Shown here: piece after piece, positions 1-10,412 of the stretch
Layout of the letters: every line of letters starts with the position of its first letter
Position numbering within the stretch: the first letter of the stretch is position 1
NCBI GenBank assembly: GCA_012960845.1
Contig: DUAN01000036.1
Location: 1 to 43,625 of the forward strand
From: Planctomycetota bacterium
Lineage (GTDB): Bacteria; Planctomycetota; UBA8108; UBA1146
DNA length: 43,625 nucleotides
Direction of reading: 5' to 3'
The notes under the pieces: generated by a model
Database searches by the model: none
Seen by the model: only the letters and a program-made list of their open reading frames with translations
What the model was told of the DNA's origin: nothing
Translations under genes and position numbers: made by a program

Positions 1-458
1 GCAATTCGAGATGCTCCCTTGGTCACCACGACGAACTGGATCACCACCAAAATCATGAAGATGATGAAGCCCACCACCACACTGGATCCGGATACGAATT
101 CGCCGAAGAACAGAACGACATCCCCAGCAGCACCGGTACCCTCTTCGCCGGCGCGGCTGAGCACCAGTCGAGTGGTGGCGATGTTGAGGGCCAATCGATA
201 CAGCGTGGCCAGCAGTAGCACGGAAGGGAAGGATGCGAACTCGAGCGGCTTTTTCAGGTACACGACCGTGAACAGTATCAGCACTGATAAACCGATGTTT
301 GCCCCGAGCAGGCCATCCATCAGCTGGCCTGGCAATGGAACCAGGATTGCGATCAACATCCCTGCTAACGCCAGCACCAGCGCAAGGTCTCTATTTTTAG
401 AGATGGAGCCTTTCCAGTCGGACGGCGCCCGTAGTGTCTTGATGTTCGGCGCGCTCAT
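1..458 (-). CDS. flhA: Flagellar biosynthesis protein FlhA, N-terminal part (runs off window edge)
   Basis: My translation from ATG at 458: MSAPNIKTLRAPSDWKGSISKNRDLALVLALAGMLIAILVPLPGQLMDGLLGANIGLSVLILFTVVYLKKPLEFASFPSVLLLATLYRLALNIATTRLVLSRAGEEGTGAAGDVVLFFGEFVSGSSVVVGFIIFMILVVIQFVVVTKGASRI, the typical FlhA/SctV N-terminus. Start overlaps flhB stop by 4 bp. Confidence 0.95.
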   Translation of the reverse strand, partial: MSAPNIKTLRAPSDWKGSISKNRDLALVLALAGMLIAILVPLPGQLMDGLLGANIGLSVLILFTVVYLKKPLEFASFPSVLLLATLYRLALNIATTRLVLSRAGEEGTGAAGDVVLFFGEFVSGSSVVVGFIIFMILVVIQFVVVTKGASRI

Positions 459-1291
459 CGAGAGTCCCTTCTGGGTCCTTCTTGTAGAGACACTTCGGTG
501 ACGGGCTCCAGGGTTCGATCGGACAGGATCTTCTTGTGTGTGTCCCTACGTTTCCGACGAATCTGTGGATTCCCGAGCAGTTCTTTTCTTTCATCCTCAA
601 CTTCTCTTCGACTCATCATCAACGAACGACGATACACCCAGCGTCTGTGTGCCCAGTCCAACGTGGAAATGATCAACAACACTCCGCAACTCTGAAGTAT
701 CAAGTTCATCGCCAACAGGCCTACCGGGATCAATCCGACAAACCCCTCGGTGGTCATTGCTGCGCCGACCTCTTCAGACCGTTCCAGTATCCCCCAGATC
801 CCTGGCACCAGTACGACACCGATCGCAACCAGTTTGAGGAGTGCCATCATGATTCTGCCGACACCTTTGAAGCCGAAGATTGTGCTGGCTCCACGGACCG
901 GGTCGATCCTCGACAGGTCGGGAAGTACTTCGCCGAACCGGATACGAAATCCCACCTGCAACCAGGTCATGACGATTGCGGCGATCAGCATCAGCAACAT
1001 CAGCGGCGAGATGATCTGGAGAATCTGCTCGATCGTTCGTTGGACCAGGCCGGAAGCGGCCTGAGTATTCAATCGCAAGGTTGCGAAGTTACCGAGACTC
1101 GTCCGTGTGATGGTGAGAAGCGCCGAGAAGATGCTACCGGAGAAGAGCAGGACGCTTCCAGCTGCCACTCCCAACACCACCGAACCGACCAGATCCTGGC
1201 TGAGTGCCGCCTGACCATTCATGCGGGCGTCTTCCAGACGCTTGCGCGTCGGAGCTTCAGTTCTCTGGTCGTGGTCATTCATCTGAAGCAT
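455..1291 (-). CDS. flhB: Flagellar export protein FlhB, short form lacking the NPTH autocleavage domain
   Basis: 278 aa; N-terminal 'DQRTEAPTRKRLEDARMNGQAALSQDL', four hydrophobic segments, 'SRREVEDERKELLGNPQIRRKRRD' linker typical of FlhB/YscU; then stops without an NPTH motif. Confidence 0.9.
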   Translation of the reverse strand: MLQMNDHDQRTEAPTRKRLEDARMNGQAALSQDLVGSVVLGVAAGSVLLFSGSIFSALLTITRTSLGNFATLRLNTQAASGLVQRTIEQILQIISPLMLLMLIAAIVMTWLQVGFRIRFGEVLPDLSRIDPVRGASTIFGFKGVGRIMMALLKLVAIGVVLVPGIWGILERSEEVGAAMTTEGFVGLIPVGLLAMNLILQSCGVLLIISTLDWAHRRWVYRRSLMMSRREVEDERKELLGNPQIRRKRRDTHKKILSDRTLEPVTEVSLQEGPRRDSR

Positions 1292-1295
1292 CGGA

Positions 1296-2130
1296 TCAGC
1301 TCCCCCCGATTCGGTCGAGGATCAGCTGCGATCCTTCCAGTCCGGTATTCACAACGACTCCGAAGAGGTCCGCGATGAAGGGAAGAGTCATGAATAGAGC
1401 CAGCATCCCGACTCCTGTCCGCACTGCAAATCCAACTGCAAACACATTCATCTCGGGAATCATCCGCGCCAGGATTCCTAACCCTATGGTCGTCACCAGA
1501 AGTGCGACGCTCGCAGGGAAGGCGATTTGTAAACCCAGCAACCAGGTCTGACCTCCGATTTCTCGGGTGACCTCGGTGGCCGTTTCTACCGGAATCCCGG
1601 TCAGGAGGATTTTCCCGATCGATCCTGGGGGTACCGAATCAAAGGAGCCGCAGAGGGCAAGAATCACCAGTCGATGCCCCTCCAGCGCCAGAAAAACCAG
1701 TCCAGCAAAGATCGTCATCAAGGTTGATGTCGGTGTGTTGGCCTGGCCGGTCGTCGGATCCACCACCTGTCCAAATGCCAGGCCTGAATCCTGTCCGATC
1801 AATTGACCACCGAGGTGGGCACCCCACATCAAGATCGCTGCAGTGGCACCGAGAACCCAGCCGATCGCCAGTTCTCCGCCGATGGAGACGGCTCCAGCCA
1901 GCGGCGTCGCGATCAACTGGCCCATTTCAAGGGTTCCTCCCCCGGGCGAGGAGGAGAGGGCGATGGGCGCCACACAGAGTGCAATCAACGCGGCGATGGC
2001 AGCCTTGATCCGCATCGGGATGACCGACGACGAAAAGATCGGTAGCACCATCATCGCTCCAGAGATTCTCGTGAAAACCAGCAGCCAGCAGGTCCAGGTC
2101 GCAGTGGAGTACTCGAATAGTTCGACCATC
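1296..2130 (-). CDS. fliR: Flagellar biosynthetic protein FliR
   Basis: ORF 1296..2198; start more likely ATG at 2130 (MVELFEYSTATWTCWLLVFTRISG) just after the fliQ stop. 'PEMNVFAVGFAVRTGVGMLALF' is the FliR/SctT signature region. Confidence 0.93.
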
Positions 2131-2134
2131 TCGG

Positions 2135-2413
2135 CTATCCCCCACCCAACGCTGTGGCCGAAGCCTGGATCATCTCCCGGGTGAAGTCGGTGGCCCAACC
2201 GAGTAGCAATGGCATCAGAAGGAGCATCGCCATCGCCACTGCCAGGATCTTCGGAACAAAGGTCAGGGTGGGATCCTGAAGATGGGTCAATGCCTGGATC
2301 AGGCTTACCGCGATTCCTACCACCAGCATCACCAGCAAGATCGGCAATGAAAGTTGCAAGGCAACGAGTAGTGCTTGCTGGAGAATATCCAGTGCCAGGT
2401 CAGCCCGTGTCAT
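2135..2413 (-). CDS. fliQ: Flagellar biosynthetic protein FliQ
   Basis: 92 aa, two TM segments, 'VVGIAVSLIQALTHLQDPTLTFVPKILAV' typical of FliQ/SctS; 4-bp overlap with fliP. Confidence 0.94.
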   Translation of the reverse strand: MTRADLALDILQQALLVALQLSLPILLVMLVVGIAVSLIQALTHLQDPTLTFVPKILAVAMAMLLLMPLLLGWATDFTREMIQASATALGGG

Positions 2414-3255
2414 CCGCTTACCGTCACCATCGAGGAGAACAGCAGCTGTTCCACCACCAGTCCCCAGCCATCCACCAGAACGAAGACCAACACCTTGAAG
2501 GGGAGCGAAACGATTACGGGGGGTAACATCAACATCCCCATCGAAACCAGCATTGCTGAAACCACCAGGTCGATCACCACGAATGGGATGTAGATCATGA
2601 ATCCCATCTCGAAAGCTCGGCGCAGTTCGCTGAGGACAAAGGAAGGGATGATCACCGTGGTCGGCAAGGCATCGACAAATCCTCTGCTGATGACACCATT
2701 TTCCTCGTAGAGTTCTTTCACCTTGGTAGGCGCACCCACTCGAGCCATCAACAACAGGTCTCCCTCGTCGATGGAGTGATACATGAACTCTCTCATGCGT
2801 GTATCTGCGTATTCATAGGCTTGCTGCCCGGAGGGCACCTCACCAGTCGAAGGGGATGGAGTCTGTTCGGCGTAGGGCTGGATGGCATTGGTGTAGATAT
2901 CACCCCAGATCGGCCCCATCACTGCAAGAGTGAGCAGGAATGACAGTCCGATCAGCACCTGATTGGGTGGGGAATCTTGGGTTCCAATCGCCCGCCGGAC
3001 GAAACCAAGCACCACGATGATTCTGGTGAAGCAGGTGGTCAGCATCAGTAATGCAGGCGCGATGGCCAGAACCGTCGTCAGCAAGATCAACTTGATGGAG
3101 ACATCGACATCCGCAGGCGATCCACTCAATACTCGATCGATGATGCCAGCATCCACTCCATCTCCGGCGCTCGCCAGTGCAACGGGTGCAGTGATCAGCA
3201 AGATCACTACCGCTCCGATGACACCCAGAATCAATGAACGCCTGAAGTTGATCAC
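2410..3255 (-). CDS. fliP: Flagellar biosynthetic protein FliP
   Basis: 'LLMLTTCFTRIIVVLGFVRRAIGTQDSPPNQVLIGLSFLLTLAVMGPIW' and 'AFEMGFMIYIPFVVIDLVVSAMLVSMGMLMLPPVIVSLPFKVLVFVLVDGW' are FliP signatures; likely GTG start at 3255 (VINFRRSLILG, signal-peptide-like), GTGA overlap with fliO stop. Confidence 0.94.
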   Translation of the reverse strand: MINFRRSLILGVIGAVVILLITAPVALASAGDGVDAGIIDRVLSGSPADVDVSIKLILLTTVLAIAPALLMLTTCFTRIIVVLGFVRRAIGTQDSPPNQVLIGLSFLLTLAVMGPIWGDIYTNAIQPYAEQTPSPSTGEVPSGQQAYEYADTRMREFMYHSIDEGDLLLMARVGAPTKVKELYEENGVISRGFVDALPTTVIIPSFVLSELRRAFEMGFMIYIPFVVIDLVVSAMLVSMGMLMLPPVIVSLPFKVLVFVLVDGWGLVVEQLLFSSMVTVSG

Positions 3256-4145
3256 TTTTTGACCTCTCCCTCGACGCTGTCGCCGAATCCCTCGAGTCGC
3301 TCCCTGAGCCACTCGATCTCATGTCTCACATCTCTCGAAGCGGTATCCACGGTTTGCGAATCTTCAGCGGTCGTGTCAAAGGTGCCCGTGTCCAAGACGG
3401 TGTCGAATGACTCTGTGTCGTCGAATGACTCTGTGTTGTCGAATGTCTCTGTGTCGTCGAATGTCTGCTTGTGGACTGTATCTGTGCCCGCCACAGTGGG
3501 GACCGATTCGCTGGGGACCGATTCGCTGGGGAGTGGAAATTTGGGTGCCAGACTCTCGCCATGGACCCGATCGATCTCCCGGATGAACTCGACGCCATAA
3601 CTGAGAGCCTCAACCTCTTGAGGATCGGTGATCACACTCAGGCAATCCATCCGACCTGAAGAAGCCCCGACCACCAGCACTCGCTCTCCTACCTTGACGA
3701 CAGTGATGTTCTGACGAGTTCCCATCGGCATTCGCATCAGAACTTTCATTCGAGCATCCTTCCCGGGAATCGCTCCTGGTGCGTATTTCCTGAGCAGGAA
3801 GAATCCACCGATTCCTATTCCCGCAATGACGAAAATCGCTCCGAGTGCCTGCATCGTTCTCCATAGATTCTCACTGCCTGAGGAACTCCCTGCGGAAACC
3901 AGACCGCCATTGGCAAAACGCTCGTCCGGCATCTGAGTTCCGGCTACCTCAGAAGAACTGGCGGAATTGGGAACTGGAAATTGCTGGGCATCGATCACCG
4001 ACGTGGCCGCGATGACCAGGATCGCCAACAGGAGGATCGTCCGGATCCAATTGCTCTCAAATTTCCTGCTGCTTACCTGAAGTTGCATTGTGGTGATCCT
4101 TTCCGATCTCCTGATCTCATCGATCCCCTTTTCAGGAAACCTCAT
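3252..4145 (-). CDS. fliO: FliO-like protein with long repetitive acidic tail
   Basis: Position between fliJ and fliP; TM 'AIFVIAGIGIGGFFLLRKYAPG' followed by 'MPMGTRQNITVVKVGERVLVVGAS', typical FliO domain; start could instead be the internal Met at 4088. Confidence 0.8.
   Translation of the reverse strand: MRFPEKGIDEIRRSERITTMQLQVSSRKFESNWIRTILLLAILVIAATSVIDAQQFPVPNSASSSEVAGTQMPDERFANGGLVSAGSSSGSENLWRTMQALGAIFVIAGIGIGGFFLLRKYAPGAIPGKDARMKVLMRMPMGTRQNITVVKVGERVLVVGASSGRMDCLSVITDPQEVEALSYGVEFIREIDRVHGESLAPKFPLPSESVPSESVPTVAGTDTVHKQTFDDTETFDNTESFDDTESFDTVLDTGTFDTTAEDSQTVDTASRDVRHEIEWLRERLEGFGDSVEGEVKK
3403..3468 (-). repeat. 18-bp tandem repeat inside fliO
   Basis: tcgaatgactctgtgtcg / tcgaatgactctgtgttg / tcgaatgtctctgtgtcg / tcgaatgtctgc...; encodes the [TS]FD[DN]TE repeats. 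Confidence 0.9.
3501..3530 (-). repeat. 15-bp tandem duplication inside fliO
   Basis: gaccgattcgctggg twice, perfect; encodes PSESVPSESV. Confidence 0.9.
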
Positions 4146-4624
4146 CAGGCCGAGTCCGACTGTATTTCTCCTGCGAACCGAGTCGTATTCTGGTCGTCGA
4201 GTTGCTTCTGTACTGTTCTGATATTTCTATCTCGTTCCATCGATTCACGGCGAGCCTTCAACTGCTCGATGATCCGGCAGCGATTCAAGGCCTGCTCGAC
4301 TTCCGATCTCACTGTATCCAGGCGATCAGACATCTCCTGCGCAATGCGAGTCTGAGCATTCGCCTGTTCACGAAGACGCTCCAGGTATCTCCGATGAACC
4401 AACAACTCCTGGCCGGTGACTCCTGAGACTTCACTTCCAGTTCTTCTGTCGCTGTTTCTTAGCTGTGAAACCAATTCTCGGTACTCGCCCTCGGTCGCTT
4501 TTATCTGTTGCCGTTGGTTCTCAAGGCGTTCGATGCAACAGGCCATTTCTTGCAGATGAAGATCCGCATCCTGCTGTCGGATTCGAAGAAGTGATCCAAG
4601 TCTGAATCGATTGCTGGTCATCAC
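4145..4624 (-). CDS. fliJ: FliJ-like export chaperone / coiled-coil protein
   Basis: 159 aa helical coiled coil 'FRLGSLLRIRQQDADLHLQEMA...', directly downstream of fliI with 4-bp overlap. Confidence 0.8.
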   Translation of the reverse strand: MMTSNRFRLGSLLRIRQQDADLHLQEMACCIERLENQRQQIKATEGEYRELVSQLRNSDRRTGSEVSGVTGQELLVHRRYLERLREQANAQTRIAQEMSDRLDTVRSEVEQALNRCRIIEQLKARRESMERDRNIRTVQKQLDDQNTTRFAGEIQSDSA

Positions 4625-5946
4625 GCCTCCTCTCCTTGTGGCCGCTGGGCGATCTCGAGGAGACGCTGCCGTGTCTCCTGAAACGCACTCTTCTCTTGCG
4701 GGGACTGTCGCAGCAGTTCTTCAATCATCGGCATCGCATCGAGAGCCTCGTCCGAGCGCAGATCCTGCCCCCTGACATGGGCCCCGAGTCGAACCATGTC
4801 TTCGATTTCCCTGTAGGTGGCGACCTTTTCCACCAGCCCTTGGGCAGCGGAAAGGTGTGGACCATCGACCACAGATGCCATCGATCGGCTGATGCTGGAG
4901 CAGGGATCAATCGGTGGATACCAGCCCTTGGAGGCGAGTTCTCTCGACAACCACATCTGACCATCGAGGATTCCGCGAACCGTGTCTCCGATCGGATCGT
5001 GCTGGTCATCTCCTTCGACCAGAACCGAATAGAAAGCTGTGATACTTCCCACCTTGCCAGTTCCGGCTCTCTCGAGAAGACGGGGCAGCATCGCGAACAC
5101 GCTCGGGGTGTAACCTCGTGTCGTGGGTGGTTCGCCAGCGCACAGACCCACTTCTCGCTGGGCGAGGGCCACTCGTGTGATGGAGTCGAGCAGCAACAAT
5201 ACATCTTGATCTTGGTCCCTGAACCACTCGGCGATCGAGGTGGCCACCTTCGCAGCCCTCAATCTCATCACAGCGGCTTCGTCACTGGTGGCCACGATCA
5301 CGACACTGCGAGCAAGGCCTTCAGGTCCCAGGTCCCTGTCGATGAAATCACGGACTTCTCGTCCCCGCTCACCAATCAGAGCGATGACCCGTATCGGAAG
5401 ATCCGTATTCCTGGCGATCATTCCAAGCAGGGTCGATTTCCCAACACCACTGCCAGAGAAAATTCCGAGTCTCTGACCTACCCCCACCGTCAAAACGGAA
5501 TCGATGGCTCTCACTCCTGTTTGAACCACTCGATCGATCTTCTTGCGTTGCAGGGCAGGAACCGGATCCGCAGTGATGTTTCGCTTCTCACCACAAGGAA
5601 GTGGACCCAGCCCATCGATGGGGACTCCCCTGGCATTGATGACTCGACCAAGGAGATGCTGCGAAACCTCGATACTCGGCTTCTCACCGTCGTGAACCAC
5701 GACATCTCTGGGGGCGATCCCCTCGCTCCCCGATTCTGGAAGTAGTTGACTTCGACCATCGGAAAATCCGATCACCTCGGCCACCACTTGCTCGCCAGAG
5801 CGAGTCTGGATGGTGCATTCCGCACCGACGGGCAGGGCCAGCCCGACCGCTTCCACGATGACTCCAGAGACCCTGGCAACCGTGCCACGGACCCTGACCA
5901 GGTGATCCTGGTCCATCATCTGTAGTGCATCCATGAAACTCATCAA
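4621..5946 (-). CDS. fliI: Flagellum-specific / type III export ATPase FliI
   Basis: Walker A 'GIFSGSGVGKSTLLGMIAR', 'VIALIGERGREVRDFID', 'LLLLDSITRVALAQREVGL', 'DPIGDTVRGILDGQMWLSREL'. Confidence 0.95.
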   Translation of the reverse strand: MMSFMDALQMMDQDHLVRVRGTVARVSGVIVEAVGLALPVGAECTIQTRSGEQVVAEVIGFSDGRSQLLPESGSEGIAPRDVVVHDGEKPSIEVSQHLLGRVINARGVPIDGLGPLPCGEKRNITADPVPALQRKKIDRVVQTGVRAIDSVLTVGVGQRLGIFSGSGVGKSTLLGMIARNTDLPIRVIALIGERGREVRDFIDRDLGPEGLARSVVIVATSDEAAVMRLRAAKVATSIAEWFRDQDQDVLLLLDSITRVALAQREVGLCAGEPPTTRGYTPSVFAMLPRLLERAGTGKVGSITAFYSVLVEGDDQHDPIGDTVRGILDGQMWLSRELASKGWYPPIDPCSSISRSMASVVDGPHLSAAQGLVEKVATYREIEDMVRLGAHVRGQDLRSDEALDAMPMIEELLRQSPQEKSAFQETRQRLLEIAQRPQGEEA

Positions 5947-6749
5947 CTCTCCTGCTTGTCCTGAATCAGAGCGAGTTCAATCAGGTCCAGTTGCGTTCCC
6001 ACCGTAAGATCTACACTTGAAGAACGACTCTTGACTCGACATCCTCCCGCGCAGATGGAATCCACACCGATCACTTCGGCACCTTCGCACCCTTCGAATT
6101 TTTTCCGAAGAGCGGGGAGAAACTGAACCACGGCAGACAGATCGGAAGAATTGACCTCGATGATGATCTGGCTTCTATCTCCGATTCGCTGAACTGCCAG
6201 CTCGATGTTCTCTACCACCATCTCTGGCAACGATTCGATTTCCCGACGAATCACCTTCTCGGCGATTCCTCGAGCCAACTTCACCGTATCTCGACGAGTC
6301 TCCTCGATCGTGAAGGTCCAGCTCCTGTCGAAATCCTCGATGATTTTCGAGAGCGTTTTTTGCAACGTCCCGCAGGTTTGCTCGACCAGTTCCTGAGCCT
6401 TCGCTTCTACTTCCTGTTCAAAAATGCGACGACTTTCTGCAAGACCACTCTGCATTCCTTCTTCATGGCCTTTCTTGAAACCGTCCTCTTCTCCATTCTT
6501 GAACCCCTCCTGCTTTCTTCCTTTGATCTCCGCTTCAAGTTGCGGAGCCAAGCGACCTTTCATCTTCTTACGCGCAGACTCCTCTTGTTGCTCGAGTTCA
6601 ATCGCCTTGTTCTGACCATCTTCGACCAGCTTCTGCATCAGGTCATGATAGGCCCGCTGCAGCACTTCGAGACGCAACTGCGCCTCCTCTACTGACCACA
6701 ACACCGGGTCGAGACTGGCATCTGCTGAAATGAACTCAGGATCATTCAT
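5943..6749 (-). CDS. fliH: FliH-like export regulator
   Basis: Long charged helix then 'VKLARGIAEKVIRREIESLPEMVVENIELAVQRI...' typical FliH/SctL C-terminal domain; between fliF and fliI. Confidence 0.85.
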   Translation of the reverse strand: MNDPEFISADASLDPVLWSVEEAQLRLEVLQRAYHDLMQKLVEDGQNKAIELEQQEESARKKMKGRLAPQLEAEIKGRKQEGFKNGEEDGFKKGHEEGMQSGLAESRRIFEQEVEAKAQELVEQTCGTLQKTLSKIIEDFDRSWTFTIEETRRDTVKLARGIAEKVIRREIESLPEMVVENIELAVQRIGDRSQIIIEVNSSDLSAVVQFLPALRKKFEGCEGAEVIGVDSICAGGCRVKSRSSSVDLTVGTQLDLIELALIQDKQES

Positions 6750-8665
6750 GACGATTGAACCTCTCTGCTATCCAGCTCATGTCGATGGCTCTCGATCATA
6801 TTGGCCAGCTTTTCATCGCTCGATCGGATGTCATCGATCACGGACCGCTCGACGTCGTCCTGTGTCGGAATCTCGCTAACAAAGCCCTCGAGCTGCTGAC
6901 CATTCACTGGCGCAGCTGTTGAATTCTGGAACAGTTCCAGCGCCGCCAGTGCGTCGATGATCGACTCCTGATCGATCTCCCTGACCTCGCGAATCATGGC
7001 TGACAGGGTGGTGAGTTCTTCGGGATTCAATGTCTCGAAAATCTGCGCCCGGAAGGAACTCTGCTCGAGAACCAGCAACGCCAAGATGTGGCGCCCAGGT
7101 ACGCTGAAACCTGCATCCGAACTGACGAAGCGGATGATCTCGACCGAGGACTCGAACCCGAGATTACTGATCTCTTGAATCGCCTTCTCGGTGAAGGAAG
7201 CTTCGCACTCCTCGAATAAGGAGTTGACCGTTTCTCTTACCTTTGGCGCCGAGAAACGAGCCCCTCCGAACCCAACGATTGCTGGAGTCATCGACGACTC
7301 CACAGGTCCGTATCGGATCACCCAGTAGACGGACACGATTCCTATCAGAAGCATCCAGAGCAAAGAATTCGGGTATCCGGTCATCGATGTCGCGACGGGC
7401 CCCACCACTCCAGCAGTTGCATTGGCTGCCAGGACCCCGCCAAAGTTGCTATGAACTACCTTGGCGACAACCGCAGCCCCTCCACCAAGACGAACCTTGA
7501 GGTGAGACTTGATCCCCGCCACGATCGTTGCAGTGTCCTCACGAAGGGCCTGCGCAGCTGAAGGATCGACCGGGTTGACGCCGCCGGTTCCAGTCGAGTA
7601 ATCGATGGGTGCTCCGGCGATTATCCGATTCATCGCCTCATTTCTGTCGAGCACCACAGTGACTGCAACCTGGTGAACCTCTGCTAGCTGGGGATCGACC
7701 CCGGATCGATCAGGGATCTGCTGGGAGGTCGCCCTGGAGACCACCGACTCAGCAAACTGAAAGGAGATCGGAGCGTAACTGGCCACCTGCTTCTGCAGAT
7801 CATGGAGACCCGGAACCAGCGATGTTGCCTCGTCACGAGGATGGGATTGCTGTTGCGGTTCGAAAAGACTCACATCCACGAGGACCTTGAACATCTCCGG
7901 GGAGAACAAGTTGGAGAGGTACCTCGTCACATACAATTCCACATCATGCTTCTTCTGCACGATGTCTCCCGAGGGAACAGCCGAACTGGACAGGTCATAC
8001 GATAGCCCCGTGGTATCGGTCATGATGATCTTGTCGAGACTGACCCCGTATACTCCAGAGACATGCGACGCGATGGTTCTTGCCATTTGCTGGCTGAGCC
8101 CATCCGCCCAGAATTCTTTATCCAGTTCAGCCTGAACACTGACCGTATTGACCTTGCTGCTCGAAGCCAGAACTGATCGACCGGTCGATTTACTGGAAGT
8201 TACGCTGACCGAATCCACCCCTTCATATCGAGCAAGATCCTGCTCCAGTTTCTCGACTTCCGATTTCTCCCAGCGCTGCTGACTCTGACGAGAGCTCTCG
8301 AACAACGAGCCGGCAAAGGGCTCGGAAGAACCTTCTTCTACTGCAGTTTCACTCAGTTCTCGCTTGACCTGGTCAAAGTCAGACTTTTGAACCTGAAGTC
8401 CTCCATCTTCTGCGAAGCGGAAATCGATGTTCCTGCTCTGGAGAGTCTCCTTGGTCTGGTAAATCTGCGTCGAGTCACCCGACGCAATGTCGACCCATTC
8501 ATTCTTCCCCTGGGAGTTGAAGAAGAAGGCAAATACGAACAGAAGAACGAAGCCAAGCCCCAATCTCCCGCCCGGACCGAGTCCCTGCCAGAAGTTGCCC
8601 AGTTCGAAGGGTGAGCCGATTCTATTCGAATCGTTGGCACCCTGGTTTTCATCCTGATTCACCAT
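6746..8665 (-). CDS. fliF: FliF-like MS-ring protein with C-terminal FliG-like segments
   Basis: 639 aa: TM1 'GLGFVLLFVFAFFFN', FliF ring-building domains, TM2 'LLWMLLIGIVSVYWVIRYGP'; C-terminus 'AQIFETLNPEELTTLSAMIREVREIDQESIIDALAAL' resembles FliG-N and 'VIDDIRSSDEKLANMIESHR' resembles the helix before FliG-C. Confidence 0.87.
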   Translation of the reverse strand: MVNQDENQGANDSNRIGSPFELGNFWQGLGPGGRLGLGFVLLFVFAFFFNSQGKNEWVDIASGDSTQIYQTKETLQSRNIDFRFAEDGGLQVQKSDFDQVKRELSETAVEEGSSEPFAGSLFESSRQSQQRWEKSEVEKLEQDLARYEGVDSVSVTSSKSTGRSVLASSSKVNTVSVQAELDKEFWADGLSQQMARTIASHVSGVYGVSLDKIIMTDTTGLSYDLSSSAVPSGDIVQKKHDVELYVTRYLSNLFSPEMFKVLVDVSLFEPQQQSHPRDEATSLVPGLHDLQKQVASYAPISFQFAESVVSRATSQQIPDRSGVDPQLAEVHQVAVTVVLDRNEAMNRIIAGAPIDYSTGTGGVNPVDPSAAQALREDTATIVAGIKSHLKVRLGGGAAVVAKVVHSNFGGVLAANATAGVVGPVATSMTGYPNSLLWMLLIGIVSVYWVIRYGPVESSMTPAIVGFGGARFSAPKVRETVNSLFEECEASFTEKAIQEISNLGFESSVEIIRFVSSDAGFSVPGRHILALLVLEQSSFRAQIFETLNPEELTTLSAMIREVREIDQESIIDALAALELFQNSTAAPVNGQQLEGFVSEIPTQDDVERSVIDDIRSSDEKLANMIESHRHELDSREVQSS

Positions 8666-9320
8666 GACTCCCTCTTTCCGGTACTGACCCTCAGGTCAGA
8701 CCACAACCTATTTGTTCCACCCGCAGGCGACTGCGGGGCTGAACTTGCGATCGGAAACTGCCTGTCGCGCCAGTTCCTCTCCCTCTGATTCAGTTCGATT
8801 TCGTGGAATGGAGGGGATCCTGGTAGCGTCCGCAGTCGACTCAACGCACCGACCGACGCTGGTGTCCCCCGAAATCTGGCGAGATGGGAAAAGAGTGTCG
8901 AAAGAGATCGGTTCAAATCGACGAATGGATCTCAATGTCTCTCCCTTCCTTTTCGATCGCCTGCGGTGGTCACAACCACAGTGTGCGACCCCTTACCCAA
9001 TGCAGGGTTCATGCCAGAACCACCGGATCCCCACCGATGGCCCGAAGAACCCCACTTCTCGTGTCGATGCCGCTGGCTCTTCCGCCAAAATCAAGCACCC
9101 ACTGCAACCCGATGACGCATCCGCGATCGAATGCGAACAGAGAGGTGGCCCACAACCGACGGAAGCCTGACACATACTTTATAAAGTGTAAAGTGCAAAA
9201 ACGCCCCAGTGTTCCGGTAATCTCATGGGCCCGGATCCGTCGCCGAGGGTGCTATTTCCCAGCGGAATCGAGCGGGTATGCTGGAATCCGAAATCGACAC
9301 CTTCTTGTGGACGGAACCCA

Positions 9321-10412
9321 GTGACTACTCTTCTCCTGGTCGTATCCCTGACCCTCTCCATCTCGTTTCTGTGCTCTCTGCTGGAGGCCACCCTCCTCTC
9401 CGTTTCACTGCCGAGTCTGGAGGAACGGCGAGATCAGAGCCGTGGAATCCGCTGGCTGCTGGAATTGAAGAGAGATCGGCTGAACGAGGCGATCAGTGCC
9501 GTCCTGATCCTCAATACCATCTCCAACACGATGGGAGCCTCGTTCGCCGGTTACCTGGTTCACCAGGAATATCCCGCCTGGGTGGCCCTCTTCACGGCGC
9601 TCTTCACCTTCCTCGTCTTGACCGGTTCAGAGATCATTCCGAAGACTCTCGGGGCGGTTCACTGCCGTAAGTTGTCCGGATTTGTCGGCATCATGCTCAA
9701 ACTGCTCACCTACCTGATGAAGCCCATCCTGGTGCTGACCGGATTCCTGACGCGGATCGTCGGTCAGAGCAAGGCGGAGCACGTCTCCCGCGGCGAGGTC
9801 GAGGCGATGATCGACATGGCCAGGACCGATGGAACCCTCGCTCACCATGAGGAGATGCTCTACGGAAATATCCTGCGACTCGATGAGATTCTGGTCGGCG
9901 ACATGATGACTCCGCGCACCGTGGTCTGGGACATGTCGCAAGCAGCCACCATCGGTGAGCTTCTGGCAGAAAATAAGCGCAGTCAGTTGCCGAGTCGGAT
10001 CCCGATTCACGCCAAGACTCGCGACGAGGTGACCGGCTATGTCTTGCTCCGTGAGATTCTCACCGCCCGCATCGGTGGGTTGGAGGAGTCCACGCCACTC
10101 TCCCACTTCAGGAGGGACATCCGCTTCGTTCCCGAGGTGGCGACCTTGCGTCAGGCGCTGAGCGACCTGACCAGTGGCCATGATCCCATCGCCATGGTCG
10201 CCGATGAACACGGTGGAACCTGTGGCCTTCTCACCACCGAGGATCTGTTCGAGACGATTCTCGGTATCGAGGTGGTCGACGAACACGATCGAGTGGAAGA
10301 TCTCAGGGATCTGGCCCAGGGACTTCGCGAAAAGCGGCTCGCCAGACTGAAGGGGGCACGGGCATTTCACACCTCGTCTGATGATGGTGACCCGAACCAA
10401 GGAAACGAGTAA
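9321..10412 (+). CDS. CNNM-type (DUF21) membrane protein with CBS domain pair
   Basis: ORF 9225..10412, likely GTG start at 9321 (VTTLLLVVSLTLSISFLCSLLEATLLSV). 'VLTGSEIIPKTLGAVHCRKL' DUF21; 'VGDMMTPRTVVWDM' and 'MVADEHGGTCGLLTTEDLFETILG' CBS region. Confidence 0.88.
   Translation: MTTLLLVVSLTLSISFLCSLLEATLLSVSLPSLEERRDQSRGIRWLLELKRDRLNEAISAVLILNTISNTMGASFAGYLVHQEYPAWVALFTALFTFLVLTGSEIIPKTLGAVHCRKLSGFVGIMLKLLTYLMKPILVLTGFLTRIVGQSKAEHVSRGEVEAMIDMARTDGTLAHHEEMLYGNILRLDEILVGDMMTPRTVVWDMSQAATIGELLAENKRSQLPSRIPIHAKTRDEVTGYVLLREILTARIGGLEESTPLSHFRRDIRFVPEVATLRQALSDLTSGHDPIAMVADEHGGTCGLLTTEDLFETILGIEVVDEHDRVEDLRDLAQGLREKRLARLKGARAFHTSSDDGDPNQGNE

What the first reader, a model, noticed from the sequence alone, without database searches (positions are those of the whole stretch)
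6746..7110. FliF C-terminus carries FliG-like segments without the torque domain
After TM2 the protein continues with 'AQIFETLNPEELTTLSAMIREVREIDQESIIDALAAL', matching the pattern of FliG-N (FKHLS..EVQTLSAAMA.VT.I....L.DVLAEF type), then 'VIDDIRSSDEKLANMIESHR', like the V/I..R..D.ELA..I helix preceding FliG-C, then stops. FliG-M EHPQ and FliG-C are absent. FliF-FliG fusions are known as laboratory/mutant forms in enteric bacteria, but a natural fusion that drops the torque part would make a non-rotating ring adaptor.
Basis: inference. Interest (0 to 1): 0.72.

Follow-up and report, generated by a model that had tools for sequence, protein, structure and literature searches.

The report
FliG stub fused to rotorless FliF
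In a group of uncultured marine Planctomycetota that kept the flagellar protein-export machine but lost the rotating motor and the flagellum itself, the membrane-ring protein FliF carries a small leftover piece of the rotor protein FliG at its end, probably as a static ring-assembly part rather than a motor part.

Summary
FliF (window 8665-6746, minus, 639 aa) has a conserved cytosolic tail. Its residues ~521-583 resemble the first half of FliG-N, and ~601-633 weakly resemble the helix before FliG-C. FliG-M and the torque domain are absent.
The FliG-N match is individually sub-threshold (Pfam 15.3 bits against a cut-off of 25). It recurs in blind tests: FliG tops the PDB profile search, the only FliG_N match at E<=1 in the whole genome is this spot, and the only real hit outside the clade among 393 planctomycete genomes is a FliG N-terminus.
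The tail occurs in 13 of 16 genomes of the family, as one clade under purifying selection. That clade has no detectable FliG, FliM/FliN, rod/hook, flagellin or MotB, but keeps FliF-H-I-J-O-P-Q-R, FlhA and an FlhB lacking its autocleavage domain. A sister genus is fully flagellated.
Verdict: real, a new variant of a known kind. The exact FliG-N homology and its ring-assembly role remain inferences.

The parts
6746..8665 (-). fliF, 639 aa, MS-ring protein with FliG-derived tail
   Evidence: YscJ_FliF 1.7e-9; full-length AF2 model matches FliF rings
7310..7372 (-). second transmembrane helix of FliF (residues ~432-452)
   Evidence: hydrophobic helix 434-452 in model; alignment A1
7106..7183 (-). 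helical linker, residues ~495-520; position of the normal FliF C-tail, but its sequence homology to FliF C-tails was not supported
   Evidence: helices in model; C-tail HMM did not hit
6917..7105 (-). FliG-N-like segment, residues 521-583 (first four helices of FliG-N)
   Evidence: omega 0.00-0.17
6767..6865 (-). C-terminal conserved helices, residues 601-633, resembling the FliG helix preceding FliG-C (weak)
   Evidence: cseg HMM best hit FliG 236-257, E=0.02
5943..6749 (-). fliH, overlaps fliF by 4 bases; fliG missing at this position
   Evidence: FliH 1e-15
4621..5946 (-). fliI export ATPase
   Evidence: ATP-synt_ab 2.1e-81, T3SS_ATPase_C 4.4e-18
4145..4624 (-). fliJ
   Evidence: FliJ 2.3e-5, 25.0 bits, just under its cut-off; synteny
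3252..4145 (-). fliO
   Evidence: FliO 2.9e-10
2410..3312 (-). fliP
   Evidence: FliP 1.4e-69
2135..2413 (-). fliQ
   Evidence: Bac_export_3 6.1e-23
1296..2198 (-). fliR
   Evidence: Bac_export_1 9.2e-56
455..1291 (-). flhB, 278 aa, ends before the NPTH autocleavage domain
   Evidence: Bac_export_2 profile positions 2-250 of 335 only; 262-286 aa in clade members with a complete gene
1..458 (-). flhA, first 152 codons, cut by the contig end
   Evidence: 98-99% identical over 152 residues to the full 729-aa FlhA in G002 and G004

Best explanation
The operon encodes a rotorless, flagellum-derived type III export machine in a clade of marine Planctomycetota. FliF's tail is a natural, truncated FliF-FliG fusion that keeps roughly the first four helices of FliG-N (the FliF-binding part) and possibly one short helix from just before FliG-C. 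FliG-M and the torque domain are deleted. Shown: gene content, synteny, absence of detectable rotor, rod, hook, filament and stator genes, conservation and purifying selection. Well supported but not proven: homology of residues ~521-583 to FliG-N. Inferred: the stub sits on the cytosolic face of the MS-ring, packs in cis with FliF and helps FliF assemble or hold its ring around FliPQR-FlhAB, with the conserved last helices perhaps docking FliH-FliI-FliJ in place of the lost FliM/FliN ring. It does not rotate.
For: FliG-N homology. Collinearity: fliG is missing exactly between fliF and fliH, where its piece is fused. Thirteen of 16 family genomes carry the tail and they are monophyletic. The segment is the best-conserved part of FliF between genera (34-46% against 21-24% for the periplasmic part; omega 0.00-0.17). 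No FliG_C above cut-off apart from MgtE-length frames, no SpoA, rod/hook, flagellin or MotB in this clade, while sister genus g4 has all of them. Precedent for keeping FliG-N while losing the rest: N-only mini-FliGs in five f5 genomes and N+M in g2. Mechanism: FliG-N co-folds with the FliF C-tail (PMC7355467), and Vibrio FliF forms MS-rings efficiently only with FliG or FlhF or when fused to FliG (PMC11481574). FlhF- and FlhG-type genes are kept in relatives.
Against: Each sequence match to FliG is weak, and a profile from genus g5 alone does not find FliG in the PDB. hhalign places the ARM-like segment on FliG-M in one alignment and on FliG-N in another. Foldseek gives FliG chains only at E>=0.28. 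The expected FliF C-tail motif before the segment was not detected. No interaction, ring or secretion data exist, and G034 kept FliG-C instead of N.
Confidence: 0.68

Rival explanations
1. The tail comes from FliG-M (as reported for Chlamydia FliF) or from another FliG ARM repeat, not from FliG-N; function otherwise the same.
For: hhalign of tails against planctomycete FliGs aligned the segment to FliG-M plus the FliG-C linker. FliG-N adopts a FliG-M-like fold when bound to FliF (PMC7355467). The Chlamydia fusion is described as FliG-M (PMC4768692).
Against: The FliG-M HMM does not hit the tail, whereas FliG-N does. Tail and segment HMMs hit the N-terminus of three different FliGs; in G084 the N match scores 17-18 bits and the M match at most 1. 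PDB and genome-wide hits are to FliG-N.
Confidence: 0.12
2. The tail is an unrelated helical domain that replaced FliG's ring-scaffold role; its resemblance to FliG is convergent or chance.
For: All single scores are below family cut-offs; g5-only profile fails; no Foldseek hit at E<0.001.
Against: Blind searches repeatedly single out FliG, in collinear order with the missing gene, and beat shuffles (one shuffle did reach E=0.003 with the whole-tail HMM).
Confidence: 0.15
3. The locus is a decaying flagellar remnant with no function.
For: Motor, rod, hook, filament and stator genes and the FlhB C-terminal domain are not found.
Against: Ten-gene synteny without stop codons across three genera, purifying selection on the tail, intact FliI nucleotide-binding and C-terminal domain matches, 71-99% FlhA identity over its first ~150 residues.
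Confidence: 0.05

Closest known systems
Chlamydiaceae FliF-FliG natural fusion (Bergeron 2016, PMC4768692)
   Same: Natural fusion of a FliG ARM domain to the FliF cytosolic end, no torque domain, organism without a flagellum, PVC superphylum
   Different: Chlamydia FliF is ~330 aa, lacks part of the periplasmic region, is fused to FliG-M and comes with few flagellar genes; here FliF is full length, the piece fits FliG-N and the whole export operon is kept
Salmonella and Vibrio laboratory FliF-FliG fusions (Francis 1992; Thomas 2001; PMC11481574)
   Same: FliG joined to the FliF C-terminus; rings form
   Different: Engineered, keep FliG-M and C and (in Salmonella) a working rotor with altered bias
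Myxococcales NF-T3SS (Abby and Rocha 2012, PMC3459982)
   Same: Flagellum-derived export system without FliG, rod, hook, MotAB or secretin genes
   Different: Injectisome lineage; no fused FliG piece reported; here the genes are plainly flagellar and a flagellated sister genus exists
FliG of flagellated sister genus g4 (G007, G009)
   Same: Same family of organisms, gene located between fliF and fliH
   Different: Full N-M-C FliG with FliM/FliN, rod, flagellin and MotB present

Membership tests
FliF (MS-ring protein) | YscJ/FliF ring-building domain between two transmembrane helices, first gene of the fliFGHIJ cluster | tested here: met
FliG | FliG-N domain above family cut-off | tested here: inconclusive
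   15.3 bits against cut-off 25; specific but sub-threshold
FliG | FliG-M with EHPQ motif | tested here: not met
   no hit in the tail; genome-wide only weak hits in one MgtE-length frame
FliG | FliG-C torque domain | tested here: not met
   absent from the protein and the genome
Natural FliF-FliG fusion (Chlamydiaceae type) | FliG-derived domain fused to the FliF cytosolic tail | tested here: inconclusive
   supported; no confident structural match
Natural FliF-FliG fusion (Chlamydiaceae type) | direct sequence relation to Chlamydia FliF | not tested
Bacterial flagellum | C-ring (FliG/M/N), rod/hook, flagellin, stator | tested here: not met
   in the window genome and 12 others carrying the tail, 83-95% complete
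Flagellar-type T3 export apparatus | FliPQR, FlhA, FlhB, FliHIJ | tested here: met
   FlhB lacks its C-terminal domain
Non-flagellar T3SS (injectisome) | SctJ/SctD pair, secretin, needle, SctQ | tested here: inconclusive
   no SctQ/SpoA homologue; no such genes in the operon; secretin and needle not searched genome-wide
FliF-bound FliG-N fold | tail superposes on FliF-FliG-N complex | tested here: inconclusive
   AF2 mean pLDDT 68; 5wuj_B match poor

The most novel reading that the evidence does not exclude
Planctomycetota repeatedly dismantled FliG once rotation was lost and kept different minimal pieces: fused FliG-N (this clade), stand-alone FliG-N, FliG-N+M, FliG N-half+C, or a FliF-FliG_C fusion. 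This would show that FliG has a rotation-independent role in MS-ring assembly or export, and define a class of export-only flagellar machines without C-ring, rod or needle.
Probability: 0.45. Interest if true: 0.75.

Novelty: new variant of a known kind. Interest (0 to 1): 0.55.

Why it matters
It is a natural experiment separating FliG's structural role from torque generation. If the stub is needed for ring formation or export, FliG-N has a selectable function without motor, FliM/N or filament. The graded series of FliG losses in one phylum, next to flagellated sisters, makes the route from flagellum to pure export machine testable, and it links to the Chlamydia FliF-FliG fusion in the same superphylum.

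Tried and rejected
'Normal FliG elsewhere' rejected. FliG-M and FliG-C origin of the main segment rejected by HMM controls, though hhalign is ambiguous. Expected FliF C-tail motif just before the segment: tested, not found, so I do not claim it. G017/G019 first looked like FliG-FliH fusions because of long open frames; reading the frames showed separate short FliGs. FliG_M hits in ~466-aa frames look like MgtE-type transporters, judged from length only. The G375 hit of the tail profile lies in an antisense-looking frame and is taken as noise. Whole-tail HMM statistics are modest: one shuffle reached E=0.003. My early notes counted eight g5 genomes; the correct number is seven, so 13 genomes carry the tail. 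My note also gave the G005 FlhB motif as GDAR; aligned by eye it is SPGR.

Full report
What is there. The 639-aa FliF (8665-6746, minus strand) heads an operon fliF-fliH-fliI-fliJ-fliO-fliP-fliQ-fliR-flhB-flhA that runs off the contig end. The fliG position between fliF and fliH is empty: the two genes overlap by 4 bases. After TM2 (~432-452) FliF continues for ~185 residues.

Conservation. The tail occurs in 13 of 16 genomes of the family: five of genus g1, one of g3, seven of g5. It does not occur in g4 (two genomes) or g2 (one). GTDB records name ten of the carriers: eight are titled Planctomycetota or Planctomycetia MAGs and two only bacterium. The FliG-N-like segment is the best-conserved part between genera (34-46% identity between g1, g3 and g5, against 21-24% for the periplasmic part between g5 and the others), with omega 0.00-0.17 among g1 members. 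Concatenated FliI, FliP, FliR and FlhA put g1, g3 and g5 in one group, next to a g2+g4 group (89% support), inside the family (unrooted, maximum likelihood).

Is the segment FliG-N? Single-sequence scores are sub-threshold: Pfam FliG_N 15.3 bits against 25, in 5 of 13 members. Specificity is the argument. FliG_N scanned over the window's own genome in six frames gives one match at E<=1, and it is FliF 6944-7063 (E=0.020); the FliF tail is also the best match in G002, G003 and G004. A profile of all 13 tails finds two Salmonella FliG sequences, residues 3-64, as the best of 177,635 PDB sequences. Over 393 Planctomycetota genomes the same profile gives only two hits outside the clade at E<=0.01: the N-terminus of a FliG (355-aa frame, up to 38% identical to other FliGs), and noise. 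A FliG-N HMM ranks g1 FliFs right below true FliGs and above 2,600 composition-matched shuffles; FliG-M and FliG-C HMMs do not. A 63-residue segment HMM finds FliG N-termini (E=1.6e-5 for G084). Against it: a g5-only profile fails, hhalign is ambiguous between N and M, and the AF2 tail model (mean pLDDT 68) gives FliG chains high but non-significant Foldseek ranks (rank 2, probability 0.75, E=0.28).

What the system lacks. In the window genome (90.8% complete) and the 12 other genomes carrying the tail (83-95%) there is no FliMN_C, no Flg_bb_rod above cut-off, no flagellin and no MotB plug. FliG_C is absent except for weak sub-domain hits in 475-aa frames of G008 and G015, whose length suggests MgtE. 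The flagellated genus g4 of the same family is positive in every one of these searches, so the searches work here. FlhB ends at 262-286 residues where the gene is complete, before the autocleavage domain that controls substrate switching (family knowledge). In relatives the operon continues with genes matching FlhF-type GTPase, FlhG/MinD-type ATPase and a sigma-70 factor of FliA/WhiG type.

How it probably works. FliG-N co-folds with the FliF C-tail (PMC7355467). Vibrio FliF needs FliG, FlhF or fusion to FliG to form MS-rings efficiently (PMC11481574). A FliG-N stub in cis is therefore best read as a ring-assembly or ring-stabilising element of an export machine that no longer rotates. The last conserved helices may dock FliH/FliI, since FliN, the usual FliH anchor (family knowledge), is missing. 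This mechanistic step is inference.

A wider pattern. Neighbouring lineages show other FliG fragments: g2 has FliG N+M without C (234 aa); f3 has N-half + C without M; five genomes of f5 g9 have FliG_N matches in 185-225-aa frames without FliG_M (G028 read in full); G034 has FliF fused to FliG_C (FliG_C 8.6e-15). G034 is a single 66%-complete MAG with no family relative to confirm it.

Known or new. A natural FliF-FliG fusion without the torque domain has been described in Chlamydiaceae (PMC4768692), so the kind is known. My literature searches found no report of one in Planctomycetota, with a full-length FliF, with FliG-N, or in an intact export operon, but only open-access papers were searchable.

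Noticed in passing
L133:7321-8892 (G034, family f12): Natural FliF-FliG_C fusion in one 523-aa ORF (YscJ_FliF 2.4e-17, FliG_C 8.6e-15) without FliG-N or M; FlhB only 212 aa. Single MAG, unconfirmed.
   Followed up: partly
L109:5507-6112 (G028) and FliG_N hits in G020, G022, G023, G027: Stand-alone mini-FliG with the N domain only, right after fliF in G028, in genomes without detectable FliM/FliN, rod or MotB.
   Followed up: partly
L131:9845-10369 and L132:10199-10723 (G017, G019): Short FliG made of the FliG-N half joined to FliG-C, middle domain deleted; no FliM/FliN or rod genes detected.
   Followed up: partly
L102:13998-14702 and 7082-8194 (G005): 234-aa FliG with N and M but no C domain; full-length FlhB in which the NPTH autocleavage motif reads SPGR by eye.
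   Followed up: partly
window 455-1291 (-): FlhB lacks the C-terminal autocleavage domain across the clade, so the usual substrate-specificity switch should be absent.
   Followed up: partly
L094:11403-14841: FlhF, FlhG and FliA/WhiG-like sigma genes kept downstream of flhA although no flagellum is encoded; the sigma regulon could reveal the exported substrates.
   Followed up: no
window 9225-10412 (+): CBS-domain membrane protein (CNNM/HlyC-like, by eye) lies divergently next to fliF in most family members, also in g2.
   Followed up: no
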